Below are positions 4,998 to 58,553 of a stretch of DNA of 64,000 nucleotides, piece by piece. The stretch lies in the NCBI RefSeq assembly GCF_001425825.1, contig NZ_LMDM01000011.1:31040-95039 (forward strand), written 5' to 3'. Positions within the stretch are counted from its first letter, which is position 1; each line of letters opens with the position of its first letter. This stretch comes from Rhizobacter sp. Root1238 (lineage in GTDB: Bacteria; Pseudomonadota; Gammaproteobacteria; Burkholderiales; Burkholderiaceae_C). Position numbers and translations under genes: made by a program. A model generated the notes under the pieces. That model was not told the origin of the DNA and did no database searches. It saw only the letters and a program-made list of their open reading frames with translations.

Positions 4998-5827
4998 GCA
5001 GCCACCCGGTCCTCGACGCCGCGCCCGGCCGCAAGGCGATGACGCTGCACCGGTTGCGCGAGATGCACGCCGCGCGCGAGCCGATCGCGATGCTGACGTG
5101 CTACGACACCAGCTTTGCGCGGCTGCTCGATGCCGCCGGCGTCGACTGCCTGCTGGTCGGCGATTCGCTCGGCATGGTGCTGCAGGGCCAGCCGAGCACG
5201 CTGCCGGTCACGCTGGACGAGATGGCGTACCACACGCGCTGCGTCGCGCGCGGCAACCGCGGTGCGTGGCTGATCGGCGACCTGCCGTTCGGCAGCTACC
5301 AGCAGGGGCCGGCGCAGGCGCTGGCCAGCGCGACGGTGCTGATGCAGGCCGGCGCGCAGATGGTGAAGCTCGAAGGCGGCGGCTGGACGACCGAGACGGT
5401 GCGCTTCCTGGTGGAGCGCGGCATCCCGGTGTGTGCCCACCTGGGGCTGACGCCGCAATCGGTGCATGCGCTGGGCGGCTACCGCATCCAGGGCCGCAAC
5501 GACGACGCCGCGGCCACGCTGCTGCGCCATGCGCGCGAGCTGGCCGATGCCGGTGCCGCGATGCTGGTGCTGGAGCTGATGCCGGCGGCGGTGGCGAAGC
5601 AGATCACCGATGCACTCGACATCCCGGTGATCGGCATCGGTGCCGGCGTGGCCTGCTCGGGCCAGGTGCTGGTGCTGCACGACATGCTCGGCATCACGCA
5701 GGGCAAGCTGCCGCGCTTCGTGCGCAACTTCATGGACGGCAGCGCGGCCATCGGCGACGCGATCACGCGCTATGTGGCCGACGTGAAGGCCCGCCGCTTC
5801 CCCGACGACACGCTCCACGGTTATTGA
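4994..5827 (+). CDS. panB: 3-methyl-2-oxobutanoate hydroxymethyltransferase
   Basis: Adds a hydroxymethyl group from methylene-tetrahydrofolate to alpha-ketoisovalerate to form ketopantoate, the first committed step to pantothenate. At 277 residues it has the normal length. Recognisable blocks are [20 protein letters not shown], the metal-binding [11 protein letters not shown], the lysine-containing MVKLEGGGW and the C-terminal [17 protein letters not shown]. The start ATG 4994 overlaps the bioB stop. panC begins 21 bp downstream, so bioB-panB-panC form one unit. Confidence 0.96.
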
Positions 5828-6682
<855 letters not shown>

Positions 6683-6853: not shown

Positions 6854-7471
6854 TCAATCCCTTTGCATCGACGCCAAGGTCACGGCGTAGTGAAGGGCCT
6901 TCAGCGCTTGGTCGTACTTGCCCGGTGACGATTCGCGAAGAGCGTCGTGCGCATCCGAATCAAAGGTGCTCAGCGCGTTCGCCAACGACGCATCGAGCGT
7001 CGCTTGGTCTTCCTGAGACATCGTCGATCCGCTTTTCCCAATCTGCGCGGAGATGCGGTCGATGCTCTTGGAGATCACGTGGACGACTCCCTTTTCCGCG
7101 ACCACATCGTCACGCCGACCCATCGCTTTCTTCTCGGCTTCGATGAAGTCAGTGCAATTCTCGAGAGCCTGGGTCCGATTGCTCTGCGAGGACTTCGTCG
7201 GGGCGCTTGTCGATGCTGTGTCTTGGGAGAATTTCGGAGCCTCGTGGGCAGGAACCGACGCGGGGGTGATGTTCTTCGCCTTGCGATACGACTTCACCGC
7301 ATGCTCGTTGGCCTTCGTCGCGATGACTTTTGCTCGTGATTCCGAGAACAGCTTGACGACATGAATGTTGGCTGCGTACTTCGTCCGCTTGAAATCGGCT
7401 TGCCATTCGACCAACTTCGGCCGGGCCCATTTCGTGACTGCTGACTTGATACTCGATGCTGCTGCGTGCAT
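6854..7471 (-). CDS. Hypothetical protein of low GC content
   Basis: A 205-residue protein that I do not recognise. It is rich in Lys, Ser, Ala and Thr, hydrophilic, and without signal peptide or membrane segment. The central stretch (about residues 70-105) is Ser/Thr/Pro-rich and probably disordered; the ends look helical (IDRISAQIGKSGSTMSQEDQ). A good ribosome-binding site (CGGAG, 5 bases from ATG 7471) supports the start. GC is roughly 55-60% by eye against about 70% around it, and codon choice is looser than in the neighbours, so it was probably acquired. It lies between the pan genes and the 3' end of the biosynthetic operon. A secreted effector or a mobile-element remnant are possibilities without direct support. 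Confidence 0.6.
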   Translation of the reverse strand: MHAAASSIKSAVTKWARPKLVEWQADFKRTKYAANIHVVKLFSESRAKVIATKANEHAVKSYRKAKNITPASVPAHEAPKFSQDTASTSAPTKSSQSNRTQALENCTDFIEAEKKAMGRRDDVVAEKGVVHVISKSIDRISAQIGKSGSTMSQEDQATLDASLANALSTFDSDAHDALRESSPGKYDQALKALHYAVTLASMQRD

Positions 7472-7633: not shown

Positions 7634-8509
7634 TCAGGCCCCCGCCGCCACCCACCCCACGATCCCCCCGATCACCCGCTCCCGGTTCACCTCCGCGGTG
7701 AAGGTGTGATCCGTGTCGTCGTGGTACTCCAGTTGCAGCCGGTCGCCGAACGGCACCTCGGGGAACGCGTCGATCAGCTGCTCGCGGTAGTTGTGGCTGT
7801 CTTCGCGCTCGCCCGTCAGCACCGCCAGGAAGCGGTTGCCGGAGCGGTGCGCCGCCGCGTAGGCGTTCGACAGGAAGGCCTTGGCCTCGGGCGAGTTCAC
7901 GTCGGCCCGCGGGCCTTCGTCAGGCCCGTCCGCAGGCCCCGCCCCCCCCATGCGCTGCCCCAGCGCCTGCCACAGCGGGTGCTTGCCCCGCGCGATGTTC
8001 ATCCAGCTGCTCAGCCGCGTCGCGCGCCGCGCATAGTGGTTCAGGTAGTAGCGCGGCGTGTGCGGGATCGACGGGTCCAGCAGCACCAGGCCCGTCACGC
8101 GCGCATCGCGGCCTGCATAGACCACCGCGTGGTCCGCGCCCGAGCACAGCCCGACCAGCACGAAGCGCCTGAAACCCCGCGCTGATTCCAGCGTGTCCAG
8201 CGCCTCCTTGATGTCGGCCAGGCTCGCGTCCAGCAGCCCGAGCCCGTCGTCGCGCGGCTCGCTGTCGCCGATGCCGGAGAGGTCGAAGCGCACCGCATCG
8301 ATCCCCTGTTGCGACAAGCGCCGGCACAACTGCACCGTCATCCGGTTCGCACCGACGCGGTGGATGATTCCCGAGTTCAGCACCACCACCGCGGGCCGGT
8401 CCGGCGTTGCAGCCGTGCCGTCCACCGCCGGCGTCACGATGCCCACCAGCGCCTTGCGCGGCCCCATCAGCAGCACCTGTTCCGTCACGTTCACCATCGG
8501 TGTTCCCAT
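7634..8509 (-). CDS. Alpha/beta hydrolase with Cys nucleophile, last gene of the PKS/NRPS operon
   Basis: A 291-residue alpha/beta hydrolase fold protein. The nucleophile elbow reads G-L-C-S-G (about 120-124) instead of G-x-S-x-G, so the nucleophile would be Cys122, as in dienelactone hydrolase. The oxyanion-side GGP-like segment (LNSGIIHRVG) and RFDLSGIGDSEP precede it, and a DTDHTF motif near residue 268 supplies the likely His. From memory it resembles the type 1 hydrolase of exosortase/PEP-CTERM loci. Its ATG overlaps the stop of the preceding hydrolase (ATGA). In this operon, which has no integral release domain, it is a candidate for freeing or cyclising the NRPS product; an editing role is the alternative. 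Confidence 0.75.
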   Translation of the reverse strand: MGTPMVNVTEQVLLMGPRKALVGIVTPAVDGTAATPDRPAVVVLNSGIIHRVGANRMTVQLCRRLSQQGIDAVRFDLSGIGDSEPRDDGLGLLDASLADIKEALDTLESARGFRRFVLVGLCSGADHAVVYAGRDARVTGLVLLDPSIPHTPRYYLNHYARRATRLSSWMNIARGKHPLWQALGQRMGGAGPADGPDEGPRADVNSPEAKAFLSNAYAAAHRSGNRFLAVLTGEREDSHNYREQLIDAFPEVPFGDRLQLEYHDDTDHTFTAEVNRERVIGGIVGWVAAGA

Positions 8510-9234
8510 CAGCTCCACCACTGCGCAATGCGCTGCAACACCTTCACCGGCACCGCGCCGGCCCCCGAATGGTGATCCTCCAGCCAGGCGGGCTGGCCCT
8601 CGACCTGCTCGACGGGCACGGCACCGATGACCTCGCCCGGCACCGACCGAACCACCAGCGTGCGTGCCGGCAACTCCGCATGCGGCAGCACCAGGCCTCG
8701 CAGCTCCGCCGCCATCGCCCCGCCCAGCGCGAAGCCCATCACCTCGTGCCCGCCGCCGTGCGCCGGGGGGCGCGCCGGCGCATCGGCCAGCAGTTCCTTC
8801 AGGTAGCCCTCGCCCAACACCACCGGGTCCCACAGCACCAGGCTGTCGACGTCCTTGCGCCGGCGCGCCGCGACGCCCGCGGCCAAGCTGCCGCCCAGCC
8901 GCAGCCCCACCAGCCCGACGCGCGCCGCATCGGTCGTGTCCTTCAGCTCGTCGATCGCCGTCTCGATGTCGGCCTGCCAACCGGCCAGGCTCGCGTCCAG
9001 CATCTCGCCGGCCGAATCGCCGGTGCCGAAAAAGTCGAAGCGCAGCACATGCACGCCGGCCTGGTTCAGCAGCGTCGCGAGCTGCTTCATCGCGCGGTGG
9101 GCACGCAAATATTCCTGGCCCCACGGCGGGCACAGCAGCACGGCCTTGCTGCCGCTGCCGGCCGCCGACGCCCGCGCCGGGCTGTAGACACCGAACAGCC
9201 GCCGTTGCCGGGTGCCGAAGAAGAAAGGATTCAT
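8509..9234 (-). CDS. Alpha/beta hydrolase-like protein lacking the Ser nucleophile
   Basis: A 241-residue alpha/beta hydrolase-fold protein (MNPFFFGTRQRRLFGVYSPA; LLCPPWGQEYLRAHRAMKQL; LRFDFFGTGDSAGEM). The elbow reads G-L-R-L-G (about 110-114), with Arg where the Ser should be. That pattern is, from memory, typical of the type 2 hydrolases paired with type 1 in exosortase loci. It may be a non-catalytic partner of the next gene, or Ser116 in the following GGSLA may act instead. Its ATG 9234 overlaps the NRPS stop (ATGA), so it is made together with the NRPS. Its direct fusion to the operon points to a role in product release or maturation. Confidence 0.72.
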   Translation of the reverse strand: MNPFFFGTRQRRLFGVYSPARASAAGSGSKAVLLCPPWGQEYLRAHRAMKQLATLLNQAGVHVLRFDFFGTGDSAGEMLDASLAGWQADIETAIDELKDTTDAARVGLVGLRLGGSLAAGVAARRRKDVDSLVLWDPVVLGEGYLKELLADAPARPPAHGGGHEVMGFALGGAMAAELRGLVLPHAELPARTLVVRSVPGEVIGAVPVEQVEGQPAWLEDHHSGAGAVPVKVLQRIAQWWS

Positions 9235-12200
9235 GTGCTGGGCAGGTGATCTGAAACATGCGCGGCGCCCGCTGCCGCGATCTGGCGAAGGTTCTGGAAG
9301 AAGAGCACGCGTGGATCCATGCGCCAGCCGGTGCGCTGCTCCACCGCCAGCGCGACCCGCAGCGACAGCAGCGAATGCCCGCCCAGTTCGAAGAAGTTGT
9401 CCTCGGCGCCCACCCGCTCGATCTGCAGCGTCTGCTGCCACACATCGGCCAGCAGCCGCTCCAGGCCCGGGGCCGGCGGTTCATACGCCGCCACCGGCGC
9501 GGCGTTGCGGAACGGGTCCGGCAGCGCCGCCCGGTCGACCTTGCCGTTCGGCGTCAGCGGGATCGCATCGAGCGCGACCACCAGCGACGGCACCATGTAG
9601 TCCGGCAGCTCGCGCCGCAAATGGCGCCGCACCTCGCTGACGGTCAGGTCCTCGCCGGGCTGGTAGACGACGTAGGCCACCAGCCGCAGGTCGCCCGGCC
9701 CGGCCTCGCGCGCGATCACCACCGATTGCCGCACCGACTCATGACCCGCGAGCACCGATTCGATCTCGCCCAACTCGATGCGGAAGCCGCGGATCTTCAC
9801 CTGGTGGTCGATGCGCCCCAGGTGCTCCAGCCGCCCCTGCGCGGTCCAGCGGCCGAGGTCGCCGGTGCGGTAGAGGCGCGCGCCGGGCTGCGTGGAGAAC
9901 CGGTCGGCGACGAAGCGATCCGCCGTCAGCTCCGGCCGCCGGTGGTAGCCGGTCGCCACGCCCGCACCACCGATCCACAGCTCGCCCGGAATGCCGGCCG
10001 GCTGCAGCTCGCCGGCCCGGCTCAGCACATGCACCTGCGTGTTGTCGATCGGCCGGCCGATGGTGATCGGTGCGCCGCCGCCGGTGACGCGTTCGGCGGT
10101 CGACCAGATCGTCGTCTCGGTCGGCCCGTACAGGTTCCACAGTTCGCCGACGCGGGCCAGCAGCGCATCGGCCAGCTCGCGCGGCAACCCCTCGCCGCCG
10201 CACAGCGCGCGAAAGCCCGGGCCACCGGTCCAGCCGGCTTCGAGCAGCAGCCGCCAGGTGGCCGGCGTCGCCTGCAGCACCGTCGTGCCGCTGGCCGCCA
10301 GCGCCGCCGCCAGCGCGACACCATCGGCCGCCGTCTCGCGCGGCAGCAGCTCGACCCGCGCGCCCACCAGCCACGGCAGGTACAGCTCCAGCCCGGCGAT
10401 GTCGAACGACACCGTGGTCACCGCGGCCAGCACATCGGCGGCCTGCAGCCCCGGCTCGCGGCGCATCGAATGCAGGAAGTTCGCGAGCGCGCCGTGCGGC
10501 ACCACCACGCCCTTCGGCCGGCCGGTCGAGCCGGAGGTGTAGATCACGTAGGCCGGGTCGTCGGGCGCGGGCGCGCTCGCGAGGTTGTCCTCGCTGCCGG
10601 CGCCCAGCGCGACCGCATCGGCCAGCACGTCCAACAGCTGCACCCCCGGTGGCAGCGCGATGCCGTCGGCCGCATCGCCGCCGGCCACCAGCACCGTCGC
10701 GCCGCTGTCCTCCAGCATGTAGGCGAGCCGCTCGGCCGGGAAGCCCGGGTCCAGCGGCAGGTACGCGCCACCGGCCTTCTGCACGCCGAGCAAGGCCACC
10801 ACCAGCGCGAGCGAGCGCTGCAGGCACACGCCGACCAGCTGGCCCGGGCCCACGCCCATCGCGCGCAGCCGGTTGGCCACGCGGTTCGCGCGCGCGTTCA
10901 GCGCCGCATAGGTGAGCGACGCGCCTTCATGGCGCACCGCCTCGGCCGTCGGGCTGCGCACGACCTGCGCCTCGAACAGGCGCGGGTAGACGTCGTTGGC
11001 ATGCGCGGCCGCGGTGCCGTTCATCTCGACGAGCAGCCAGCGCTGCTCGTCGGCCGTCAGCATCGGCAGCGTCGCGAGCGGCGTGGCCGGTGCCAGCACC
11101 AGCGATTCGAGCAAGGCCCGGTAGTGCCCCGCCATGCGCCGGATCGTCGGCTCGTCGTACAGCTCGGTTGAGTATTCGAACAGCACGCTGCCGCTGACGG
11201 CCGCCTCGATGTACAGCCCCAGCTCGAACGGCGCCGCGGCGCGGTCGATCGCGACCGGCTCCCACTGCAGCCCCGGGAACTCGATGCTGCTCATCGGCGC
11301 GTTCTGCAGCGTGAACAGCACCTGCGCGAGCGGCGGCAGCGCCGGGCCGCGCAGCGGCCGCAGCTCTTCGACCAGCTTCGCGAACGGCAGCTCCTGGTGC
11401 GCATAGGCCTCCAGCGCGGTCGTGCGCACGTTCGCCAGCAGCTCGGAGAACGGCAGGTCGTCGCGGCAGGTGCTGCGCATCACCAGCGTGTTGATGAAAC
11501 CGCCGACCAGTCCCTCGACCTCGCGCTGCTCGCGGTTGGCGATCGGCACCGCCACCGCGATGTCGGCCTGCCCGCTGTAGCGGTGCAGCAGCGTCACGTA
11601 GGCGGCGAACAAGGTCATGAACAGCGTGCAGCCGTGCGCGCGGCTGAAGGCCTCGAGCGACGCGATCAGCGCCGGCGGCAGCACGTCGGCATGCCAGGCG
11701 GCGCGGTCCGACAGGATGGTCGGGCGCGTGTGGTCGGTCGGCAGCAGCAGCGGCGCGACGCCGTCGAGCTGCCGCCGCCAGTAGCCGAGCTGCGCCTCCA
11801 GCACCTCGCCCTGGAAGCGCTCGCGCTGCCACACCGCGACGTCGCGGTACTGCACCGCCAGCGGCGGCCAGGCCGGTGCCGCGCCGCGGCGGAACGCCGC
11901 ATAGGCCTCGGCCAGCTCGCGGCCCAGCACGCCGTATGACCACTGGTCGCCGGCGATGTGGTGCATCGCGAGCAGCAGCAGGTGCTCGTCGTCGGCGACC
12001 TGGGCCAGCAGCGTGCGGAAGACCGGGCCGTGGACCAGGTCGAAGTAGGCGCGCGCGGTGTCGGTGGCCAGCGCAATCGCCGCCTCCTCGGCCTGCCGGC
12101 CCTGCGCGCGCAGGTCGTGGAAGGGCAGCGCGACCGGCTGGTGAGGCTGCACCGTCTGCATCGGCCGGCCGTCGACCATCGCGAACGTCGTGCGCAGCGT

Positions 12201-15200
12201 CTCGTGGCGCTGCACCAGCGCATCGAGCGCCCGCTCCAGCGCGGCGCGGTCGAGCACGCCGTGCAGCCGCAGCGCGACCGGCATGTTGTAGGCCGAGCTC
12301 TCCGGCGCCAGCTCGTGCAGCAGCCACATGCGCTCCTGCGCGAACGACAGCGGCGTCGGGCCGTCGTCGGCCAGCCGCAGGATCGCCACGCTCGCCGCCG
12401 CCGGCGCGCGGCCGGCCTCGATCGCCTGCGCCAGCTCGTGCAGCACCGGCCGCTCGAACACCGTGCGCAGCACGAAGCCGCGGTCGAAGGCCTGCCGGAT
12501 GCGCGCCGTCACCTGCGTCGCGAGCAGCGAGTGCCCGCCCAGTTCGAAGAAGTTGTCGTGGCGGCCGATCTCGGCATCGCCCAGCCCGAGCACGTCGCGC
12601 CAGATCGCCGCGAGGCCCGGTTCGACATCGCCCCGCGGCGGCTCGATGCGCCGAATGGCCGCCGCCGCCAGTCCTGCCGGCGCCGGCAGCGCCTGGCGGT
12701 CGACCTTGCCGTTGCCGGTCAGCGGCAGCGTCGGCAGCGCGACGAACGCGGCCGGCACCATGTAGTCGGGCAGCCGTTCGCGCAGCGCCTGCTTCAGCGC
12801 GTCGACCTCGGCGGTGCCGGCGACATACGCGACGAGCCGCTGGTCGCCCGGCACGTCCTCGCGTGCCAGCACCGCGCTCTCGCGCACGCCGGGCTGCTGC
12901 GCGAGCAGCGCCTCGATCTCGCCGAGCTCGATGCGGAAGCCGCGGATCTTCACCTGGTGGTCGATGCGGCCGAGGTACTCCAGCTCCAGCGCGCCATCGC
13001 CGGCACGCACCCGCCAGCGCGCCAGGTCGCCGCTGCGGTACAGCCGCTCGCCGGGGTGGAACGGGTCGTCGACGAAGCGCGCCGCCGTCAGCTCGGGCCG
13101 GTTCAGGTAGCCGAGCGCCAGGCCCGGCCCGCCCACATACATCTCGCCGGTCACGCCGACCGGCACCGGCTGCAGCAGCGCATCGAGCAGCCGCACGCGC
13201 AGGTCGGGAATCGGCACGCCGATCACGCTGCCGGCGCGCGCGTCGACATCGGCCCGCGCGATCGGCCGGTACGTCACATGCACGCAGGTCTCGGTGATGC
13301 CGTACATGTTGACGAGCCGCGGCTGCGCGTCGCCATGGCGCTCGAACCACGGCCGCAGTGCCTGCAGCTCCAGTGCCTCGCCGCCGAACACCACCTCGCG
13401 CAGCGCGGTCTGCCGCGGCGCGCCGCTGTCCACGTCGGCCTGCACCAGCTGGCGGAACGCCGACGGCGTCTGGTTCAGCACCGTGACGCGCTCGTCGTGC
13501 AGCAGCTGCAGGAAGGCCTCCGGCGAGCGGCTCACCGCCTGCGGCACGACCACCAGGCAACCGCCGTGCGCCAGCGCGCCCCACAGCTCCCAGACCGAGA
13601 AGTCGAACGCGACCGAGTGGAACAGCGTCCACACGTCCTGCGGGCCGAAGTGGAACCAGCCGGCGGTCGCGCTGAACAGCCGGTCGACCGCGCGGTGCGT
13701 CAGCAGCGTGCCCTTCGGCTGGCCGGTGGAGCCGGAGGTGTAGATCACGTAGACCAGGTCGTCGGCGCCGACCGCGCTCGCCGGGTTGCCGGCCGGCGCG
13801 TCGGCGAGCGTCGGGTCGTCGAGGCACAGCGTCGTGCCGGCGTGCCGCGGCAGTTGCGCGAGCAGCGCCGTCTGCGTCAGCATCACCGGCGCCTGTGCAT
13901 CGCCGAGCATGAAGGCGACCCGCTCGGCCGGGTACGACAGGTCGATCGGCAGGTAGGCGCCGCCGGCCTTCACGATGCCGAGCAGGCCGACCACCAGCGC
14001 GATCGAGCGCTCGGCGCACAGCCCGACGCGCGTGCCCGCTGCGACGCCCAGCGCCTGCAGCCGGTGCGCCACCTGGTTCGCGCGGCGGTTCAGCTCGCCG
14101 TACGACATCGAGATGCCGTCGCAGCGCAGCGCGGTCGCGTCCGGGCTGCGGGCGGCATGGGCCTCGAAGCGATGGTGGATGGGCCGCACGTCGGCGGCCA
14201 CCATGGCCACCGGCGGCAGCACCGCCGCACGCTCGGCGGCGTCGAGCAGCGGCAGCCGGCCGATCGGCATCGCCGGGTCGGCAACGATGCCGTCGAGCAG
14301 CACGCGGTAGTGCGCCCACAGCCGCGCGATCGTCGCGCGGTCGAACAGCACGGGGTTGTACTTGAACGCGCCCGACAGCGCATCGCTGCGGTCGATCAGG
14401 CCGAGCCCGAGGTCGAACTGGCCTTCCTGCTGCGCGATCGCATACGGCACGACGCGCCAGCCGGCGAAGTCGACCGGCACGTCGCTCGCACCGGCGACCA
14501 GCAGGTCGTTGAGCTCGCGGAACTGCTCGAAGCGCTGCAGCACGAACATCGTCTCGAACAGCGGCGAGCGGCTCGCATCGCGCACCGGCTGCAGGCGCTC
14601 GACCAGCAGCGACAGCGGGTACTCCTGCGCGTCCAGCGCTTCCAGCAGCGTGCCGCGCACCTGCTGCATCAGCTCGCGGAACGGCAGCCCGGCATGCACG
14701 CGCGAGCGCAGCGCCACCGGGTTCACGAAGTCGCCGATCACGCTCGCGAATTCGGGCTGCGTGCGGCCGAAGGTCGGCGTGCCGACGATCACGTCCTCGC
14801 AGCCGGTGTGGCGGAACAGCAGCGCCTTGAACGCGGCCAGCAGCAGCACGTACAGCGTCATGCCCTCGTCGCGTGCCAGCTGGTTCAGGCGCGCGGTGGT
14901 CGCTGCGTCGACATGGAAATCGAAGCTCGCGCCCTGCCCGCTGCGGCGCGGCGGGCGCGGCCGGTCGGGCGGCAATTCGACCTCGGCGCGCGGCGCGGCG
15001 AGCTGGCGCGTCCAGTACGCGGCGAGCTGCTCGCCCTGCGGGCCGGCCAGCATCGCGGCCTGCCAGTCGGTGTAGTCGGCGTACTGCAGCTCGACGCGCG
15101 GCAGCCCGGCCGGCGCGCCGCCGCCGGCTTCGACGAGCAGCGCGCGAAACTCTTCCAGCAGCATCAGCAGCGACCAGCCGTCGATCGCGATGTGGTGCAT

Positions 15201-15779
15201 CGCGAGCAGCAGCACCTGGTCGTCGGCCGCGCGGCGGTACAGCGCGCTGCGCATCACCGGGCCGCGCGCCAGGTCGAACGGGCGGCGGGCGTCGGCGTCG
15301 ATGCGCTGGCGCAGCGCGGCGTCGTTGACGCCGGCCGCGTCGTGCACCTCCAGCACCGCGGTACCGGCACCGGCGATGCGCTGGCGCGGCAGGCCGTCGA
15401 TCACGTCGCAGGTGGTGCGCAGCACCGCATGCCGGTCGACCAAGGCCTGCAGCGCCTGGCGCAGCGCGGCCTCGTCCACCGGCGACAACACGCGCAGCGC
15501 GAACAGCACGTTGTAGGCCGCGCTGTCGGGTTGCTCCTGGTGCACGAACCACAGCGCCTGCTGCGGGTGCGACAGCGGCGCGATGCGCTGCTGCTGCGCC
15601 GCCTGCGCGCGCAGCGCGGCCAGCACCTCGTCGCGGCGCGCGCCGATCTGCGCGCGCTGCTCGGCCGACAGCGCGCCCTGCGGCGCCCGGAAGCGCAGCC
15701 GGCTGCCCTCGAACCACAGCAGCACGCCTTGCGCGGCCAGCGCGGACAACAGGTCGGTCACCGGAGTCACTTGAGTCAC
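9231..15779 (-). CDS. Two-module NRPS (docking-C-A-T-C-A-T), predicted Thr then Gly
   Basis: A 2,182-residue peptide synthetase that should take the polyketide from PKS6 and add two amino acids. Order: TubC-type N-terminal docking domain (about 5-55, TDLLSALAAQGVLLWFEGSR); C1 (about 70-500, HHIAIDG); A1 (about 530-1020, YTSGSTGQPKG); T1 (GGHSLL, Ser near 1083); C2 (about 1140-1560, HHIAGDQ, with Gln for the usual Gly); A2 (about 1590-2080, YTSGSTGRPKG); T2 (GGHSLL, Ser near 2131). Aligning to GrsA, I read the A1 code as DFWNVGMVHK, which fits Thr (DFWNIGMVHK), and A2 as DILQLGLIWK, which fits Gly. No epimerase, thioesterase or reductase is present. The start is GTG 15779, overlapping the preceding transporter stop (GTGA). 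Confidence 0.92.
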   Translation of the reverse strand: MTQVTPVTDLLSALAAQGVLLWFEGSRLRFRAPQGALSAEQRAQIGARRDEVLAALRAQAAQQQRIAPLSHPQQALWFVHQEQPDSAAYNVLFALRVLSPVDEAALRQALQALVDRHAVLRTTCDVIDGLPRQRIAGAGTAVLEVHDAAGVNDAALRQRIDADARRPFDLARGPVMRSALYRRAADDQVLLLAMHHIAIDGWSLLMLLEEFRALLVEAGGGAPAGLPRVELQYADYTDWQAAMLAGPQGEQLAAYWTRQLAAPRAEVELPPDRPRPPRRSGQGASFDFHVDAATTARLNQLARDEGMTLYVLLLAAFKALLFRHTGCEDVIVGTPTFGRTQPEFASVIGDFVNPVALRSRVHAGLPFRELMQQVRGTLLEALDAQEYPLSLLVERLQPVRDASRSPLFETMFVLQRFEQFRELNDLLVAGASDVPVDFAGWRVVPYAIAQQEGQFDLGLGLIDRSDALSGAFKYNPVLFDRATIARLWAHYRVLLDGIVADPAMPIGRLPLLDAAERAAVLPPVAMVAADVRPIHHRFEAHAARSPDATALRCDGISMSYGELNRRANQVAHRLQALGVAAGTRVGLCAERSIALVVGLLGIVKAGGAYLPIDLSYPAERVAFMLGDAQAPVMLTQTALLAQLPRHAGTTLCLDDPTLADAPAGNPASAVGADDLVYVIYTSGSTGQPKGTLLTHRAVDRLFSATAGWFHFGPQDVWTLFHSVAFDFSVWELWGALAHGGCLVVVPQAVSRSPEAFLQLLHDERVTVLNQTPSAFRQLVQADVDSGAPRQTALREVVFGGEALELQALRPWFERHGDAQPRLVNMYGITETCVHVTYRPIARADVDARAGSVIGVPIPDLRVRLLDALLQPVPVGVTGEMYVGGPGLALGYLNRPELTAARFVDDPFHPGERLYRSGDLARWRVRAGDGALELEYLGRIDHQVKIRGFRIELGEIEALLAQQPGVRESAVLAREDVPGDQRLVAYVAGTAEVDALKQALRERLPDYMVPAAFVALPTLPLTGNGKVDRQALPAPAGLAAAAIRRIEPPRGDVEPGLAAIWRDVLGLGDAEIGRHDNFFELGGHSLLATQVTARIRQAFDRGFVLRTVFERPVLHELAQAIEAGRAPAAASVAILRLADDGPTPLSFAQERMWLLHELAPESSAYNMPVALRLHGVLDRAALERALDALVQRHETLRTTFAMVDGRPMQTVQPHQPVALPFHDLRAQGRQAEEAAIALATDTARAYFDLVHGPVFRTLLAQVADDEHLLLLAMHHIAGDQWSYGVLGRELAEAYAAFRRGAAPAWPPLAVQYRDVAVWQRERFQGEVLEAQLGYWRRQLDGVAPLLLPTDHTRPTILSDRAAWHADVLPPALIASLEAFSRAHGCTLFMTLFAAYVTLLHRYSGQADIAVAVPIANREQREVEGLVGGFINTLVMRSTCRDDLPFSELLANVRTTALEAYAHQELPFAKLVEELRPLRGPALPPLAQVLFTLQNAPMSSIEFPGLQWEPVAIDRAAAPFELGLYIEAAVSGSVLFEYSTELYDEPTIRRMAGHYRALLESLVLAPATPLATLPMLTADEQRWLLVEMNGTAAAHANDVYPRLFEAQVVRSPTAEAVRHEGASLTYAALNARANRVANRLRAMGVGPGQLVGVCLQRSLALVVALLGVQKAGGAYLPLDPGFPAERLAYMLEDSGATVLVAGGDAADGIALPPGVQLLDVLADAVALGAGSEDNLASAPAPDDPAYVIYTSGSTGRPKGVVVPHGALANFLHSMRREPGLQAADVLAAVTTVSFDIAGLELYLPWLVGARVELLPRETAADGVALAAALAASGTTVLQATPATWRLLLEAGWTGGPGFRALCGGEGLPRELADALLARVGELWNLYGPTETTIWSTAERVTGGGAPITIGRPIDNTQVHVLSRAGELQPAGIPGELWIGGAGVATGYHRRPELTADRFVADRFSTQPGARLYRTGDLGRWTAQGRLEHLGRIDHQVKIRGFRIELGEIESVLAGHESVRQSVVIAREAGPGDLRLVAYVVYQPGEDLTVSEVRRHLRRELPDYMVPSLVVALDAIPLTPNGKVDRAALPDPFRNAAPVAAYEPPAPGLERLLADVWQQTLQIERVGAEDNFFELGGHSLLSLRVALAVEQRTGWRMDPRVLFFQNLRQIAAAGAAHVSDHLPST

Positions 15780-16690
15780 GTCGCAGGGGTCCTTTCCAGT
15801 GCGGATTGCCACAACCACAGCGCCAGCAGCGCGAGCGCGATCCACACCGCGCCGAGCAGGTCGCGGTGCGTGAACGCCTCGCCGGCGGCGCCCCATTCCA
15901 CCAACGCCATGCACAGCAGGTGCACATGCAGCGTCGGCGCCACCTGCGCGACCGGCGCGCGTTCGCAGGCCCGGTCGAGCGCCCACAGCGCCAGCAGCCC
16001 GACGGTGCCGATGCCGGCGAGCAGCGCCGCGTCGTGCAGGTTGGGCATCACCCAGACGAAGGGCATCAGCGGCGTCAGCAGCGCGAACACGCCGAGCGCG
16101 GTGAAGAACAGGTTGGCCTGCACCGGCTCGTCGCGCAGCGCGCGCGTCATCACGACGTAGATGCTGAACGACAGCGCCATCACGAGCGGCAGCACCGCAC
16201 CGGCCAGCGACCGCGGCAGCGCCGGCTCGGCCATCACCGCGGCCACGCCGCTGCCGATCGCCGCCACCGCCCACACCCAGCGCGGCACGCGCTCGCCCAG
16301 TGCCAGCCGCGCAAAGCCCAGGACCATCAGCGGCGCCACCCAGAACAGCGCCCACACCGTGCCGGGCCGGTCGCCGGCTGCGAGCGACAACGCGAAGCTG
16401 GCCGGCATCACCAGCATCAGCAGCGAGCGCGACAGCTGGAAACCGAGGCGCCGCGTGCGCCACAGCCGCGACGGCGCACGCCAGCCGACGAGCAGCCCCA
16501 GGCAGGCCAGGTGCACCGCATAGCGGCACCACACCACCTGCATCAGCGAATAGTGCAACTGCAGCCGCGCGCCGAACACGCCTTCGACGACCGCCCAGGC
16601 GAGCGCGAACAGCGCCAGCAGCAGCATCGCGCTGCGGCCCGGCGCACGCTGCGCGAGCGAGGCCACGGGGTGCAGCGGCGCGACGTCCAT
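15776..16690 (-). CDS. EamA/DMT-family transporter, second of a tandem pair
   Basis: A 304-residue inner-membrane protein with about ten hydrophobic segments in two repeated halves, as in the drug/metabolite transporter superfamily (RhaT/EamA type). Typical pieces are LLALFALAWAVVEGVF, LFWVAPLMVLGFARL and the second-half start LAGAVLPLVMALSFSIYVVM. It is a clear paralogue of the gene before it (shared RLWRTRR/PLWRTGR and ANLFF/TNLFW with NLHDA/TLHDA blocks). Located inside the operon between PKS6 and the NRPS, it probably exports the product or an intermediate, or confers self-resistance. I chose ATG 16690; an in-frame GTG at 16696 overlaps the upstream stop (GTGA) and is equally possible. 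Confidence 0.85.
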   Translation of the reverse strand: MDVAPLHPVASLAQRAPGRSAMLLLALFALAWAVVEGVFGARLQLHYSLMQVVWCRYAVHLACLGLLVGWRAPSRLWRTRRLGFQLSRSLLMLVMPASFALSLAAGDRPGTVWALFWVAPLMVLGFARLALGERVPRWVWAVAAIGSGVAAVMAEPALPRSLAGAVLPLVMALSFSIYVVMTRALRDEPVQANLFFTALGVFALLTPLMPFVWVMPNLHDAALLAGIGTVGLLALWALDRACERAPVAQVAPTLHVHLLCMALVEWGAAGEAFTHRDLLGAVWIALALLALWLWQSALERTPAT

Positions 16691-16692
16691 CG

Positions 16693-17678
16693 TCACGGCC
16701 TCGTCTCGTCGTCCAGCGGCACCGGGCCGGTCGCCGGTTCCAGCCGCATCGGCGCGCCGATCGGCGCGCGCGGTGCCGGCAGGTCGCGCGCGATCGCGGC
16801 GCGCCACAGCGCGAGCGCGATGCCCCCGACCATCAACAGCCCGAGCGCGATGCGCAGCGACGGCAGGTGCCCGCGCACCGCCAGCGACACCCCCGTCAGG
16901 CAGGCCACGTGCACATACAGCGCCGGCGCGATCCACGGCAGCGGCGCGCGGCGCAGCGCCTGCTCCAGCAGCCACAGCGCGGCAAAGCCGACGACGCCGA
17001 GCGCGGCGAACACCAGCGCGTCGTGCAGCGTGGGCGTCACCCACACGCCGGGCAGGAAGGGCAGCACGCCGACCAGCCCGCCGAGGCCGACCCAGAACAG
17101 GTTGGTCATCGCCGGCTCGTGGCGCAGCGAACGCGTCAACGCGAGGTAGCCGGCGAAGGCCAGCCCCATCAGCAAGGGCACGACCGAGGCCTGCAGCGTC
17201 GGCGGCCGCGCCGGCTCCAGCATCGCGACCGTCGCGCACAGCCCGGCGGCCGCGGCGACCCACAGCAGCAGCGGCGCCTTCGACAGCAGCCAGCCGCGCG
17301 CCAGCAGCAGCGCGAACACCGGCGCGACCCACAGCCCGGTCATCGCGAGGTGCGGCGACGCGCCCTGCAGCACCGCGACGCCGAACGACAGCGGGATCGC
17401 GAGCATCAGCAACGCTCGCACCAGCTGTGCCAGCGGACGGCCGGTGCGCCACAGCGGCGTCCCGCTTCGCCAGCCCCACACCGCGCCCATCAGCGCGAGC
17501 TGCAACGCGAAGCGGCAGCCTTCGATCTGCAGCACGTCGTAGCCGCCCTGCAGGCGGCTCGCGATCAACTCCAGCACGGCCCAGACTGCCGAGAACGCGA
17601 ACGCGAACAGTAGCCCGGATGCCAATCCGGGTCGGCGTGACCGGGGACCCCGGATTGGCATCCGGGCTACGGGATCAC

Positions 17679-17682
<4 letters not shown>
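16693..17682 (-). CDS. EamA/DMT-family transporter, first of a tandem pair; repeat-derived N-terminus
   Basis: A 329-residue inner-membrane protein with about ten membrane segments, paralogous to the next gene. It starts at GTG 17682, which overlaps the PKS6 stop (GTGA). The first about 24 residues (SDPVARMPIRGPRSRRPG) are encoded by a 22-bp inverted repeat and its loop; the first membrane helix begins directly after it (ASGLLFAFAFSAVWAVLEL). The positively charged repeat-encoded segment would lie on the cytoplasmic side, which suits the topology. Likely role: export of the polyketide-peptide, alone or as a heterodimer with its neighbour. Confidence 0.85.
17610..17670. repeat. 22-bp perfect inverted repeat inside the EamA gene start
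   Basis: Arms at 17610-17631 and 17649-17670 are exact reverse complements (core TAGCCCGGATGCCAATCCGG), separated by 17 bases. The sequence resembles the TAGCCCGGAT...ATCCGGG intergenic palindromes I remember from beta- and gammaproteobacterial genomes. Here it lies within the 5' coding sequence of the transporter, just after PKS6, and could also fold in the mRNA and slow or stop transcription between the PKS and transporter genes. Confidence 0.85.
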
Positions 17683-48686
<31,004 letters not shown>

Positions 48687-48688
48687 CG

Positions 48689-53929
<5,241 letters not shown>

Positions 53930-53942
53930 CGGGGCCTCGGGG

Positions 53943-54719
53943 TCAGGCGAAGGTCGGAGACGCTGCCCAGAGCGGCGCCAGCGTCACCGACAGGTCGGCC
54001 AGCAGCGCGTCGCGCCGGCCGGCCAGGTAGAAGTGGTCGCCGGGGAACACCCGCACGCGGAACGGGCCGCGCGTCTCGCCGCGCCAGCCGTCCAGGTGCT
54101 CGCGCGGCGTCAGCGGATCGTCGCTGCCGCCGAACACCGACAACGCGCAGTCGAGCGGCGCGCGGCCGGCCGGCGGCTGGTGCGTCTCGAGCGCGGCGAT
54201 GTCGGCGCGCAGGCTGGGCAGCAGCAGCGCCATCACGTCGGCATGCTGCAGCACCTCGGCGGGAATGCCGCCGTAGCGGCGCTGGATCTCGGCGACGAAG
54301 GCGTCGTCCGGCAGGCGGTGCAGCGGGGCGTCGTTCGACGGCCAGTGCGGCGGGCGGCGGCCCGACACGATCAGCTGCTGCGGCACCGGCGCGCCGTGCT
54401 GTTGCAGCGCACGCGCCATTTCGGCGGCGAGCACCGCGCCCATGCTGTGGCCGAAGAACGCGAACGGCTTGCCGTCGAAGTCCGCGCGCAACGCCGGCAG
54501 CAGCGCGTCGACCAGCGTGGCCATGCGCGCGATCGGCGGCTCGTCGAGCCGGTTCGCGCGGCCGGGCAGCTGCACCGCGACCAGCTCCAGTTCGGCCGGC
54601 AGGCCGGCCAGCCACGGCCGGTACACGGCGGCGCCGACACCGGCATGGTGGAAGCAGTACAGCCGGGCTCGCGCCTCGGTGCGGGGAGTGAAGCGTTGCA
54701 GCCAGGAATTTGCGCTCAT
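53943..54719 (-). CDS. Type II thioesterase, first gene of the operon
   Basis: A 258-residue stand-alone thioesterase of the GrsT/RifR type that hydrolyses wrong or stalled acyl groups from PKS and NRPS carriers. It has the FCFHHAG-like start (YCFHHAGVGAAVYRPW), the nucleophile elbow GHSMG (Ser92), Asp in FGGSDDPL near 196 and the catalytic His in PGDHFYL near 223. No signal peptide. As first gene it is followed at 13 bp by PKS1. The start ATG 54719 has no strong ribosome-binding site (purine-poor GTCCTGCG). A release role for the final product cannot be excluded, since the NRPS lacks its own thioesterase. Confidence 0.93.
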   Translation of the reverse strand: MSANSWLQRFTPRTEARARLYCFHHAGVGAAVYRPWLAGLPAELELVAVQLPGRANRLDEPPIARMATLVDALLPALRADFDGKPFAFFGHSMGAVLAAEMARALQQHGAPVPQQLIVSGRRPPHWPSNDAPLHRLPDDAFVAEIQRRYGGIPAEVLQHADVMALLLPSLRADIAALETHQPPAGRAPLDCALSVFGGSDDPLTPREHLDGWRGETRGPFRVRVFPGDHFYLAGRRDALLADLSVTLAPLWAASPTFA

Positions 54720-54873: not shown

Positions 54874-55794
54874 TCAGTGTGCGGTTTGCAACGCCTCGTC
54901 GAGCGCCTGTTGCGCCTGTGTCTGCCAGCGGTCGTGCAGCGCGAGCGCGGCCCGCGCCGCCTGCACCGCGGCGTCGCGCCGGCCGAGCGCCAGCAGCGCA
55001 TCGGACAAGTTGATGAAGGCCGGCGCGCTGCGGTGCTGCTCGGCGGCAGCGCGGAACACGTCGGCGGCCTGCGCCACCTTGCCGCTCGCACGCAGCGTGT
55101 TGCCCCAGCCGATCTGCAGGCTCAGCGTGCCCGGCCAGCGCCGCAGCGCCGACGCATACACGCCGGCCGCCACCGCCGGCGGTGCGTTGCGCTCGAAGCC
55201 GACGGCCGCCTCGATGGCAGCTTCTGCGTGCGCGGTGGCCGGCCAGTCGCCCGGCGGCAGCGCGACGAAGGCCCAGAAGCCGGAGCGGCCCCAGGTGTGC
55301 TCGAAGGTCGACAGCGGCAGGCGCTCGCGCTCGGTGCGGCCGGAGCGCAGCAGCAGCTCGCCGCGTGGCAGGTCGTGCCCGACGACGACCGCGTAGTGCC
55401 ACAGCGGCACGAACGACAGCCCGAGGTTCTGCAGCACGACGACCGGGTGGCCGGCCGCCACCTCGCGCAGCAGCGCATCGAGCTCGCCGGGGATGCGCGT
55501 CGCGACCGCGCCGTGGCGGCGTGCGCCGGCCAGCATCTCGGTCTGCAGGCTGCCGGCACGCGCCGGCACGAAGACCTCGTCGGCCAGCGCGACCGGATCG
55601 ACCGCGATGCCGGCCGCGCCGAGCGCAGTGGCCAGCGCCGCCGGGCCGCACTGGTGGTCGGTCTGCGGGAAGAACGGCGTCGCGCGCAACTCGGCGACGG
55701 GCGGCAGGTCGGCAGGCGGGTGGTCGCGCAGCGCGGCGGTCTGCACCGCACAGCCGGTGAGGACGAGGCTCAGCGCCAGCCACGCGGCGCGCAT
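54874..55794 (-). CDS. PA2778-family C39-like cysteine peptidase lipoprotein with TPR tail
   Basis: A 306-residue envelope protein. The N-terminus is a lipoprotein signal (lipobox LTGC, Cys15). The papain-like C39 core has Gln44 and the catalytic Cys49 (FPQTDHQCGPAALATAL) and His133 (LWHYAVVVG). The C-terminal third is TPR-like helices (WGNTLRASGKVAQAADVFRAAAEQ, INLSDALLALGRRDAAVQAA). The arrangement is that of the PA2778 family, commonly paired with PA2779-type genes as here (4-bp gap). The substrate is unknown. It precedes the biosynthetic operon on the same strand, but the family is widespread, so it probably belongs to the flank. Confidence 0.85.
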   Translation of the reverse strand: MRAAWLALSLVLTGCAVQTAALRDHPPADLPPVAELRATPFFPQTDHQCGPAALATALGAAGIAVDPVALADEVFVPARAGSLQTEMLAGARRHGAVATRIPGELDALLREVAAGHPVVVLQNLGLSFVPLWHYAVVVGHDLPRGELLLRSGRTERERLPLSTFEHTWGRSGFWAFVALPPGDWPATAHAEAAIEAAVGFERNAPPAVAAGVYASALRRWPGTLSLQIGWGNTLRASGKVAQAADVFRAAAEQHRSAPAFINLSDALLALGRRDAAVQAARAALALHDRWQTQAQQALDEALQTAH

Positions 55795-55798
55795 CGCC

Positions 55799-56206
55799 CT
55801 AGCGGATCGGCCGCGTGAACGGGAACACCTTGGTGTAGCCGAGGATGTCGGTGATCAGCAGCAGCACCAGCACGAAGATCAGCGAGCCGACGATGTCGTT
55901 GGCGCCGGCCGGCGCGCGGTCGATCTCGGCCCCCAGCCGCGCCGCCTCGGCATCGCTCAGCGCGGCGACGCGCAGGCGCGCCTGGTCGAGGTCGACGCCG
56001 CGTTCGGCCAGCGCGCGGGCGACGTCGTCGCGCTGCAGCGCCGCCAGCAGGCGCTCGCGCTGCGCGGCGCCGCTGACGATGCCCTCGCTTTCGGCGACCT
56101 GCTCGGTGCCGATCGTCAACGCATGCGCCGGCGCACCGGCCAGCGCGAGGCTCGCGGACAACACGGCGGACAACGCGAAGGACGGAACACGGGTGGCAGG
56201 GCGCAT
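55799..56206 (-). CDS. PA2779-family small membrane protein
   Basis: A 135-residue protein with a signal peptide (PSFALSAVLSASLALAGAPAHA, cleavage after AHA), a helical middle (RERLLAALQRDDVARALAERGVDLDQARLRVAALSDAEAARL) and one C-terminal membrane helix (IVGSLIFVLVLLLITDILGY) followed by a short basic tail. This is the layout of PA2779-type proteins, which accompany the PA2778-type peptidase. It may be a substrate or anchor of that peptidase; this is unproven. Start ATG 56206 was chosen because it gives the complete signal peptide. Confidence 0.82.
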   Translation of the reverse strand: MRPATRVPSFALSAVLSASLALAGAPAHALTIGTEQVAESEGIVSGAAQRERLLAALQRDDVARALAERGVDLDQARLRVAALSDAEAARLGAEIDRAPAGANDIVGSLIFVLVLLLITDILGYTKVFPFTRPIR

Positions 56207-56381
56207 GCGGGATCTCCGGCGGGTCGGGGCGGCGCCGGTGGGCGCGACGGGCCATCGTAGCAAGCCGGCCGAAGGTCTGCGTATCCGCGGCGCGAGCCTG
56301 ATAGGCTCCGGGTCTGCGCCGGTGCGTGTCGTACCGCGCGCGCCTCCCCTTCATGCCGCCGTGACCCCTTCCCGCCATTCG

Positions 56382-57593
56382 ATGAGCCCCGCCGTGGTGG
56401 TGCTCTCGCTGATCCTGCTGCTCGGGATCCAGCCGGTCACGACCGACCTGTACCTGCCGGCCCTGCCGATGCTGACGCGCGCGCTCGACGCGCCGGTGTC
56501 GGCGGCCCAGCTGACGCTGTCGGCGCTGATCATCTGCTTCGGCCTCGCGCAGCTGGTGTGCGGGCCGCTGGCCGACCGCTTCGGCCGCCGGCCGGTGCTG
56601 CTGGCCGGACTCGCGCTGTACACCGTGGCCAGCGTGCTGAGCGCGCTCGCGCCGGCTATCGGCTGGCTGGTGTGGTGGCGCGCGCTGCAGGGCGCGGCGA
56701 TGGCGGCGGCAGTGACCTGCGGCCGCTCGATCATCCGCGACCTGTACGCGCCGCACGAAGGCGCCCGCGTGATGTCGCGCGCATTGAGCGGCCTGGGCGT
56801 GATCGCGATGGCGAGCCCGGTGATCGGTGGCCTGCTGGCGCAGCACCTGGGCTGGCATGCGGCGCTGATGGCGCCGGCGGTGTTCGGCGCGCTGACGCTG
56901 GCCTTCATCGCGTCGCGCTTCGACGAGACGGTGCCGGTGCTGAATGCCGGCGCGACGCGGCTCGGCCCGCTGCTGCGCAACTGGGGCAGCGTGCTGCGCC
57001 ACCCGACCTTCCAGGCCTGGGCCGCGCTGTCGGCCTTCACCTACGGCGGGCTGTTCTTCCTGCTGGCCGGCTCGTCGTTCGTGTTCATCGAGGTGCTCGG
57101 CACCTCGCGCGTCGGCTATGGCGTGATCATGCTGAGCAACTCGCTGGCGTACACGCTGGGCACGCTGCTGTGCCGGCGGCTGCTGGCGTCGCACGGGCTG
57201 CGCCGCGCGGTGGCGGTCGGCGGCGGCTTCACGCTCGGCGGCGGCGTGACGATGGCCGCGCTGAGCCTGGCCGGCGTGCACGAGGTGTGGGCGATCGTGC
57301 TGCCGCAGTGGCTGTACGCGCTCGGCCACGGCATCCACCAACCCTGCGGGCAGGCCGGCGCGGTCGGCCCGTTCCCCGAGAAGGCCGGCACCGCGGCCTC
57401 GCTGTCGGGCTTCGGCATGACGCTCAGCGCGCTGGCCGTCGGCCTGTGGCTCGGCAAGCACCTCGACGGCACCGTCTACCCGCTGACGCTGGGGATCGGG
57501 CTGTGCAGCATCGGCGTGGCCACGGTGGCGTGGACGCTGGTGCAGCGGCATGGCGAGCCACCCCGCGCCGCCGCCGCCACGCAGGCCGCCTGA
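56382..57593 (+). CDS. Bcr/CflA-type multidrug efflux MFS transporter
   Basis: A 403-residue inner-membrane protein with twelve predicted helices. The motif A loop [16 protein letters not shown] between helices 2 and 3 and the N-terminal [12 protein letters not shown] are typical of the Bcr/CflA drug:proton antiporters. ATG 56382 was chosen; an in-frame GTG at 56361 would add seven residues. Divergent from the PA2779-type gene across a 175-bp gap in which I see no clear promoter. It could contribute to resistance or export for the nearby cluster, but its separation by the peptidase pair argues for an independent role. Confidence 0.9.
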
Positions 57594-57618
57594 ACCATTT
57601 CAAGACAACTGCTTTCCG

Positions 57619-58553
57619 ATGACCGCATCCCTGAACTACCTCTGCCTCGCCGGCCCCACCGCTTCCGGCAAGACCGCCGCCTCGCTCGCGATCGCGCAGG
57701 CCCTGGCCGAACGCGGCAGGCCGGTCGAGATCGTCAGCGTCGACTCGGCGCTGGTCTACCGCGGCATGGACATCGGGACAGCGAAGCCCGGCGCCGCCGA
57801 GCGCGCCGCGGTACCGCACCACCTGATCGACATCATCGAGCCGAGCGAGGCCTACTCGGCCGCGCGCTTCGTCGGCGATGCCGAGCGCTTGATCGCCGAG
57901 ATCGGCGCGCGCGGTGCGTTGCCGCTGCTGGTCGGCGGCACGATGCTGTACTTCAAGGCGCTGTTCGAAGGGCTGGATGCGATGCCGGCTGCCGACCGCG
58001 CGGTGCGTGCCGCGCTCGAGGCGCAGTGCGAGCGCGACGGGCTGCATGCGCTGTACCGCGAGTTGCAACGCGTCGACCCGGTCACCGCGAAGCGGCTGCA
58101 GCCGGGCGACCAGCAGCGCATCCAGCGCGCGCTGGAGGTGTACCGCGTCAGCGGCCAGCCGATCTCGTCGTTCCACACCGAGAAGCCGGCGCGCGAGCTG
58201 CCGCCGCTGATCTCGCTGGAGCCGGCCGATCGCGCGTGGCTGCACCAGCGCATCGAGGCCCGCTTCCACCAGATGCTCGAAGACGGCCTGGTCGACGAGG
58301 TGCGCCGGCTCGAAGCGCGTGGCGACCTGGATGCCGACATGCCGTCGATGCGCTGCGTCGGCTACCGGCAGACCTGGGAGGCGCTGGTCGAGGACGACCT
58401 CAGCGAGCTGCCGGAACGCGGCATCGCCGCGACGCGCCAGCTCGCGAAGCGGCAGATCACCTGGCTGCGCGGCATGCCGCAGCGGCAGGTGATCGCCTGC
58501 GATGCGCCGGACGCGTTGGCGCGCGCGGTCGAGTGCGCGCTGCGGCTGGTGGC

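What the first reader, a model, noticed from the sequence alone, without database searches (positions are those of the whole stretch)
7634..54719. A 47-kb PKS/NRPS operon with predicted C-methylated lipo-dipeptide product
Twelve same-strand genes: type II thioesterase, six single-module PKSs, two transporters, a dimodular NRPS and two hydrolases. Colinear reading gives R-CH=CH-CH2-CH2-CO-CHMe-CH2-CHMe-CHOH-CHMe-CH2-CH2-CO-Thr-Gly. The ketone and hydroxyl are placed so that a six-membered hemiketal could form. I cannot match this architecture to a named compound from memory.
Basis: partly seen in the sequence, partly recalled or inferred. Interest (0 to 1): 0.85.

Follow-up and report, generated by a model that had tools for sequence, protein, structure and literature searches.

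The report
Polyketide-peptide operon with paired release hydrolases
A bacterium that is likely a Rhizobacter carries a 12-gene operon predicted to build a methyl-branched polyketide joined to threonine and glycine, and its last two genes encode a pair of hydrolases that likely free the finished molecule in place of the usual built-in release domain, which this assembly line lacks.

Summary
In detail: 12 co-directional, nearly gapless genes (54719 to 7634) encode a type II thioesterase, six one-module PKSs, two EamA transporters, a C-A-T-C-A-T NRPS and two hydrolases. The same 12 genes recur (85-98% protein identity) in 2 of 10 other same-genus genomes. The A-domain codes support Thr-Gly. An orphan PKS/NRPS cluster is ordinary.

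The end stands out. The NRPS has no thioesterase; the hydrolases follow it. HYD2 is a Cys-His alpha/beta hydrolase; HYD1 has Arg where the nucleophile should be. The pair follows a thioesterase-less terminal NRPS in 27 of 55 other loci examined: next to it in 13, fused to it by HYD1 in 6, one gene further on in 8. In 11 places HYD1 and HYD2 are one protein. Control NRPS stretches, including one in this genome that ends in a normal thioesterase, lack the pair. I infer a two-part cysteine off-loading enzyme; no assay exists, my searches found no description, and 28 of 55 loci without such an NRPS show that the pair is not NRPS-only.

The parts
53943..54719 (-). type II thioesterase (PF00975), first gene of the operon
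   Evidence: E 3.5e-50
48689..53929 (-). PKS1: KS-AT-DH-KR-T; AT with methylmalonyl-type motifs (GHSMG, VASH); no loading module
42195..48686 (-). PKS2: KS-AT-DH-ER-KR-T
37687..42198 (-). PKS3: KS-AT-cMT-T, no KR
29954..37690 (-). PKS4: KS-AT-DH-cMT-ER-KR-T; KR has NHAAAN at 30701-30718
24113..29953 (-). PKS5: KS-AT-cMT-KR-T; KR has NHAAAN at 24887-24904
17679..24116 (-). PKS6: KS-AT-DH-ER-KR-T; DH motif HxxxDxxxxP at 21216-21245
16693..17682 (-). EamA-type transporter 1
   Evidence: 28.9 bits, cut-off 28.2
15776..16696 (-). EamA-type transporter 2
   Evidence: 34.4 bits, cut-off 28.2, scored on a longer frame
9231..15779 (-). NRPS: TubC_N docking-C-A(Thr)-T-C-A(Gly)-T, 2182 aa, ends 12 residues after the T-domain match, no thioesterase
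8509..9234 (-). HYD1: alpha/beta hydrolase with Arg112 (codon 8899-8901) at the nucleophile position (GLRLG)
7634..8509 (-). HYD2: alpha/beta hydrolase with Cys122 (8144-8146) nucleophile and His268 (7706-7708)

Best explanation
The operon encodes six one-module polyketide synthases and a two-module peptide synthetase that has no thioesterase, and the finished chain, predicted to be a methyl-branched polyketide acyl-Thr-Gly, is likely released by the two hydrolases encoded last, with HYD2 as the likely cysteine enzyme and HYD1 as a partner that lacks a nucleophile. Predicted chain, with R unknown: R-CH=C(CH3)-CH2-CH2-CO-CH(CH3)-CH2-CH(CH3)-CH(OH)-CH(CH3)-CH2-CH2-CO-Thr-Gly; each position is inferred from motifs. 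Inferred mechanism: HYD1 stands in the place of a thioesterase domain, docks the last carrier domain and, with HYD2, forms a two-part enzyme; Cys122 of HYD2 takes over the peptidyl group from the carrier's thioester, and water or an internal hydroxyl (for example the PKS5 alcohol, giving a 12-membered ring) completes release. Shown: gene order, absence of a thioesterase, the conserved Cys/His of HYD2 and Arg of HYD1, recurrence of the pair after thioesterase-less NRPSs, and natural NRPS-HYD1 and HYD1-HYD2 fusions. Not shown: catalysis, binding, the acceptor and the product.
For: Of 53 other loci scanned, 26 have a terminal T domain as the nearest upstream assembly-line domain, same strand. None of the 26 NRPSs has a thioesterase: 20 stop 10-55 residues after T; in 6 (L209, L211, L212, L214, L215, L218) HYD1 is fused in frame to the NRPS C-terminus, and those six domains match TIGR03101 best and not PF00975. 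Of the 20, 12 have the HYD1 match within 151 nt of the NRPS frame end; 7 have one gene between, a phosphopantetheinyl transferase (PF01648); in L232 a cupin-like gene lies between and only HYD2 was detected. HYD1-HYD2 are one open frame at 11 places; AlphaFold of one, from this genome, gives pTM 0.84 over two alpha/beta-hydrolase domains. HYD2: Cys 54 of 54, His 54 of 54; HYD1: Arg 52 of 53, no conserved His. Controls: 0 of 80 NRPS loci from named genomes carry the pair; 0 of 14 other NRPS stretches in relatives do, among them the second cluster of this genome, which ends in a PF00975 thioesterase. Places looked at after the rule was formed: 1 of 2 follows it, in a different class of the phylum, near a separate cluster that ends in a thioesterase and has no pair.
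Against: No biochemistry. 28 of 55 loci carry the pair without a terminal T domain upstream (one of them, L225, has C and A matches upstream but no T match); in L140 and L143 it sits in polysaccharide loci, so the pair is not specific to NRPS. In 8 of the 27 another gene lies between NRPS and pair. The HYD2 tree needs 8 changes of the NRPS label (shuffled mean 18.3), and the window's HYD2 sits on a long, weakly placed branch. Loci were chosen by likeness to HYD2, not at random; in 7 of the 14 control stretches a thioesterase end was seen, the others end otherwise, at T or at the edge of the stretch; and I did not measure how often thioesterase-less NRPSs lack the pair. The operon also encodes a type II thioesterase that could act on the chain.
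Confidence: 0.6

Rival explanations
1. HYD1 and HYD2 do not release the chain but tailor the product or protect the producer (an esterase or amidase acting on the released compound), and release is by the type II thioesterase or by spontaneous hydrolysis.
For: Both are alpha/beta hydrolases of esterase/lipase-like fold; a type II thioesterase is the first gene of the operon.
Against: The NRPS-HYD1 fusions place HYD1 next to the last carrier domain in 6 loci; the pair is absent from the control NRPS loci; HYD1 keeps no nucleophile in 52 of 53 (Gly in the other), odd for a free-standing esterase.
Confidence: 0.2
2. The pair is an acyltransferase that hands the carrier-bound chain to a separate acceptor (a sugar, lipid or small amine), the role it would share with its relatives in polysaccharide loci.
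For: Related pairs lie beside an XrtA-type glycosyltransferase in L140 and a WecG/TagA/CpsF glycosyltransferase in L143 and, in L221, L222, L224 and L245-L247, near an AMP-binding enzyme.
Against: No glycosyltransferase or acceptor-making gene was matched among the 12 genes.
Confidence: 0.2
3. The cluster is decayed and makes nothing, since KR4, KR5 and DH6 deviate at catalytic residues.
For: His for Tyr in KR4 and KR5, HxxxDxxxxP in DH6.
Against: All 12 frames are intact, and the active-site motifs checked are kept in two relatives about 10% diverged, with one I to V in an A domain; His at that KR position is found in 112 of 120 proteins picked for likeness to the PKS5 C-methyltransferase region, the window's own included, so it looks like a type and not a lesion.
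Confidence: 0.05

Closest known systems
NRPS C-terminal thioesterase domain (PF00975, type I TE)
   Same: Alpha/beta-hydrolase fold placed at the C-terminal end of the last NRPS module to release the chain; HYD1 takes that place in six NRPSs.
   Different: Two proteins instead of one domain; Cys nucleophile on HYD2, none on HYD1; no PF00975 match.
Exosortase A system-associated hydrolases 1 and 2 (TIGR03100, TIGR03101)
   Same: Best-matching curated families of HYD2 and HYD1; a related pair sits beside an XrtA-type glycosyltransferase in L140.
   Different: Scores lie below both curated cut-offs (103 of 168.45; 104.1 of 202.75 bits); here the pair belongs to a PKS/NRPS operon.
Trans-acting penicillin-binding-protein-type thioesterases (SurE)
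   Same: Stand-alone off-loading enzyme acting on NRPSs (review PMC11735501, passages seen).
   Different: Different fold family; one protein; not a paired hydrolase.
Cysteine thioesterase of ObiF1 (obafluorin), recalled
   Same: Alpha/beta-hydrolase thioesterase with Cys instead of Ser.
   Different: Built into the NRPS and self-sufficient; recalled, not compared here.
Orphan modular PKS/NRPS clusters
   Same: One of a very large class: 8799 assembly-line PKS clusters, 95% orphan (PMC10394414, passages seen).
   Different: The termination pair.

Membership tests
cis-AT modular type I PKS-NRPS hybrid | each PKS module holds its own KS, AT and carrier domain; NRPS modules C-A-T | tested here: met
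cis-AT modular type I PKS-NRPS hybrid | a release domain (TE or R) at the end of the last module (usual, not defining) | tested here: not met
   NRPS ends 12 residues after the T-domain match
Type I NRPS thioesterase (PF00975) | PF00975 match for HYD1 or HYD2 | tested here: not met
   Hydrolase_4/Abhydrolase/DLH matches only; the C48 control matches PF00975
Type I NRPS thioesterase (PF00975) | Ser nucleophile in GxSxG | tested here: not met
   HYD2 Cys, HYD1 Arg
Exosortase A-associated hydrolase 1 (TIGR03100) | score over curated cut-off 168.45 | tested here: not met
   HYD2 103 bits
Exosortase A-associated hydrolase 2 (TIGR03101) | score over curated cut-off 202.75 | tested here: not met
   HYD1 104.1 bits
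Exosortase A-associated hydrolases | exosortase A gene in the same locus | tested here: inconclusive
   no exosortase among the 22 window frames scanned with Pfam or the 10 scanned with NCBIfam, but not every frame was scanned
PBP-type thioesterase (SurE) | beta-lactamase/PBP fold | tested here: not met
   one search matches; HYD2 model matches alpha/beta hydrolases
Paired Cys/Arg hydrolase off-loader (proposed here) | releases a carrier-bound chain | not testable with these tools
   needs an assay

The most novel reading that the evidence does not exclude
A so far undescribed class of assembly-line termination enzyme: a two-part alpha/beta hydrolase in which a nucleophile-less subunit (Arg at the elbow) takes the place of the thioesterase domain and a second, cysteine subunit does the chemistry. 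It replaces the thioesterase of many NRPS and PKS/NRPS lines in the window's own class and in at least one other class of the phylum, often travels with the carrier-activating phosphopantetheinyl transferase, and shares ancestry with the uncharacterised exosortase-associated hydrolase pair of polysaccharide loci, which would then also act on carrier-bound acyl groups.
Probability: 0.45. Interest if true: 0.78.

Novelty: new variant of a known kind. Interest (0 to 1): 0.6.

Why it matters
How a finished chain leaves its assembly line sets whether the product is an acid, a ring or an adduct. A recurrent thioesterase substitute, with one nucleophile-less and one cysteine subunit, would explain how a set of thioesterase-less NRPSs terminate, would give a testable function to two curated protein families known only as exosortase-associated hydrolases, and would help predict products of orphan clusters. 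The cluster itself offers a defined target: a polyketide with likely four methyls, on Thr-Gly.

Tried and rejected
Those 80 loci served as a control. Comparison with solved structures did not tell malonyl from methylmalonyl ATs: AT1 and AT2 both match DEBS ATs well, so the AT1 call rests on motifs. An empty site for the operon could not be read: of the 8 same-genus genomes without the operon, 5 have panC and a C39-peptidase relative far apart or on different contigs and 3 gave no C39 match. A test of the C-methyltransferase/His link on fetched DNA gave only 16 usable KRs: 13 without cMT have Tyr, 1 without cMT has Gly, the 2 with cMT are the window's own; 2 further KRs had no readable motif and were dropped. 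Paper searches: (10 of 10 used); searches returned nothing, one search listed 20 of 456 papers, 12 of 75, 12 of 34, one or two papers each; no listed title or abstract start names the hydrolase pair or a Rhizobacter PKS/NRPS product. Papers looked into by passage search only: PMC7762793 (no hits), PMC11735501, PMC10394414.

Choice of loci: all 9 non-window matches; 4 of the 41 match rows; 20 of the 49; 20 of the 89 (best ones plus lower-scoring ones as contrast); both new places. Of 20 control stretches fetched, 19 were used, joined to 14; L263 was left out because it belongs to the same region as L242. In one search hydrolase hits under 60 bits were not shown.

Full report
1. What is there. 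The window lies on contig C11 of a 6.52 Mb genome. The genus is likely Rhizobacter: the closest named PKS5 relative (91% over residues 900-1500) is from Rhizobacter sp. SG703 on a contig of 578053 bases, the same length as contig C3 of G005, which genome search lists as same genus. Twelve genes read leftwards from 54719 to 7634 with junctions of -7 to +13 nt, so they are likely one transcript. Pfam confirms each module. The same 12 genes in the same order are in G005 and G008 (85-98% protein identity); in the other 8 same-genus genomes neither the NRPS nor HYD2 is found at that level. Five further PKS5 versions, 74-87% identical over the same region and not named as to organism, are in public data.

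2. Reading the product. The A-domain residues, read by hand against recalled GrsA positions, are DFWNVGMVHK (Thr) and DILQCGLIWK (Gly); the motifs that carry them are conserved in the two relatives except for one I to V in G008. AT1 carries GHSMG and VASH, AT2-AT6 carry GHS[VL]G and xA[FA]H; by recalled rules AT1 is methylmalonyl-type and the rest malonyl-type (AT2, YAFH, is the least certain). A methylmalonyl-CoA-mutase-family gene (740-aa frame, 803 bits) is in the genome, as are two phosphopantetheinyl transferase matches. PKS1 has no loading domain, so the starter is unknown. DH6 has Asp for the Gly of HxxxGxxxxP, in all three clusters, so full reduction by PKS6 is uncertain.

3. The KRs of PKS4 and PKS5 have His where the catalytic Tyr should be, while those of PKS1, PKS2 and PKS6, which have no C-methyltransferase, have Tyr. 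Of 120 proteins fetched by likeness to the PKS5 C-methyltransferase region (the window's own included), 112 show the same His, 6 show no motif and 2 only an unrelated match. It looks like a C-methyltransferase-linked KR type; a DNA-based test was too small to decide, and two paper searches returned nothing.

4. The end of the line. The NRPS stops 12 residues after its last T-domain match: no thioesterase, no reductase. HYD1 and HYD2 follow with overlapping ends. Both are alpha/beta hydrolases; their best curated families are the exosortase A-associated hydrolases 2 and 1, below the cut-offs. HYD2 has Cys122 in GLCSGA and His268; HYD1 has Arg112 in GLRLG. In an alignment of 54 HYD2s the Cys and the His are invariant; in 53 HYD1s the Arg is kept in 52 (Gly in L233), and no column has His in more than 34 of 53.

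5. Recurrence. From matches to HYD2 in the genus, the order, the class and the family, I fetched 53 other places (selection told under Tried and rejected) and scanned them with profiles built from this window's domains and from the hydrolases. In 26 of 53 the nearest upstream assembly-line domain on the same strand is a terminal T domain. In 6 of these HYD1 is the NRPS's own C-terminal domain, verified as one open frame and by Pfam/NCBIfam. In the other 20 the NRPS stops 10-55 residues after T; in 12 of them HYD1 begins within 151 nt of the NRPS frame end, in 7 a phosphopantetheinyl transferase gene (PF01648, over the cut-off) lies between (L137, L228, L235, L236, L237, L241, L242), and in L232 a cupin-like gene lies between and only HYD2 was detected. 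A gene that activates carrier proteins, set inside the unit, fits a carrier-directed role of the pair. The 26 come from ten family labels. Of the other 27, L139 has the pair within a PKS/NRPS region but not downstream of a terminal T, L225 has C and A matches upstream without a T match, and 25 show no terminal T upstream; in L140 and L143 neighbours are polysaccharide genes. HYD1-HYD2 are fused at 11 distinct places, one in this genome on C45. Two further places found later gave one that fits (L271, another class of the phylum: C-A-T-C-A-T, then HYD1, then HYD2) and one that does not (L272). Total 27 of 55: 13 adjacent, 6 fused, 8 one gene away.

6. Controls. None of 80 NRPS loci from named genomes holds the pair (one weak 32-bit HYD2-like hit on the other strand); of 84 complete NRPS frame ends there, 22 look thioesterase-like, 30 end at T, 32 otherwise. 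None of 14 further NRPS stretches in relatives holds the pair; six have an NRPS frame ending in a long tail with a GxSxG motif and one a direct thioesterase match, while the other seven end otherwise, at T or at the edge of the stretch. The second NRPS cluster of this genome is one of the six and matches PF00975. G010, G006 and G1352 each have one thioesterase-type cluster without the pair and one thioesterase-less NRPS with it. The tree of HYD2 puts the NRPS label at 8 changes against a shuffled mean of 18.3, so the link has been gained or lost several times.

7. Structure. The HYD2 model (pLDDT 85.7, pTM 0.84) matches lipases and feruloyl esterases best. The natural HYD1-HYD2 fusion gives pLDDT 81.0 and pTM 0.84 for 605 residues, which suggests that the two domains pack in a defined way; the 50 PDB matches listed align 259-328 columns of it, about one domain, a myristoyl-ACP thioesterase among them. 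Inter-domain error was not reported, so the interface is a suggestion.

8. Reading. Fusions join T to HYD1 and HYD1 to HYD2; HYD1 takes the thioesterase's place but lacks a nucleophile; HYD2 keeps Cys and His. The simplest account is a two-part off-loading enzyme. Release as acid or as ring cannot be told. Rivals are tailoring, transfer to an acceptor, or release by the type II thioesterase. The pair's presence in 28 of 55 loci without such an NRPS is the main fact against an NRPS-only role.

9. Standing. An orphan PKS/NRPS cluster is ordinary: a 2023 catalogue counts 8799 assembly-line PKS clusters, 95% orphan (PMC10394414, passages). The pair as an NRPS terminator is what deserves follow-up. 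The ten paper searches list no description of it, but they cover open-licence papers only and three of the lists were cut.

Noticed in passing
window 30701-30718 and 24887-24904: KRs of the two modules that hold both a KR and a C-methyltransferase have His for the catalytic Tyr (NHAAAN); 112 of 120 proteins fetched by likeness to PKS5 share it. Possibly a C-methyltransferase-linked KR type.
   Followed up: partly
window 21216-21245: DH of PKS6 reads HxxxDxxxxP instead of HxxxGxxxxP, kept in two relatives.
   Followed up: partly
window 36206-36283, 40720-40797, 45027-45047: In-frame RPEPVEG / QAQP-type stretches, with CTGAGCCTGTCGAAGG and its reverse complement at two of the places, sit in the KS-AT linkers of PKS3 and PKS4, with one RPEPVEG later in PKS2; they look like a dispersed repeat that was inserted and translated.
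   Followed up: no
G000:C45, L147 9548-11368: The same genome encodes a HYD1-HYD2 fusion outside the cluster.
   Followed up: partly
G000:C48 50000-89999 (L248, L249): A second PKS/NRPS cluster that ends in a classical PF00975 thioesterase; a like-ordered one in G005 C1.
   Followed up: partly
L137, L228, L235, L236, L237, L241, L242: A phosphopantetheinyl transferase gene (PF01648) sits between the terminal NRPS and HYD1 in these seven loci.
   Followed up: partly
window 6854-7471: 205-aa protein downstream of the operon, no Pfam or NCBIfam match, not found in the stretches fetched around the operon in G005 and G008.
   Followed up: no
window 4005-6682 and 54874-58557: bioB, panC on one side and a C39 peptidase, miaA on the other flank the operon in all three carriers; of 8 same-genus genomes without it, 5 have panC and the C39 relative far apart or on different contigs and 3 gave no C39 match.
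   Followed up: partly
L232-L235, L237, L241, L242: In these seven relatives the NRPS before the hydrolases ends C-A-T-C-T, a last module in which no A domain was detected.
   Followed up: no
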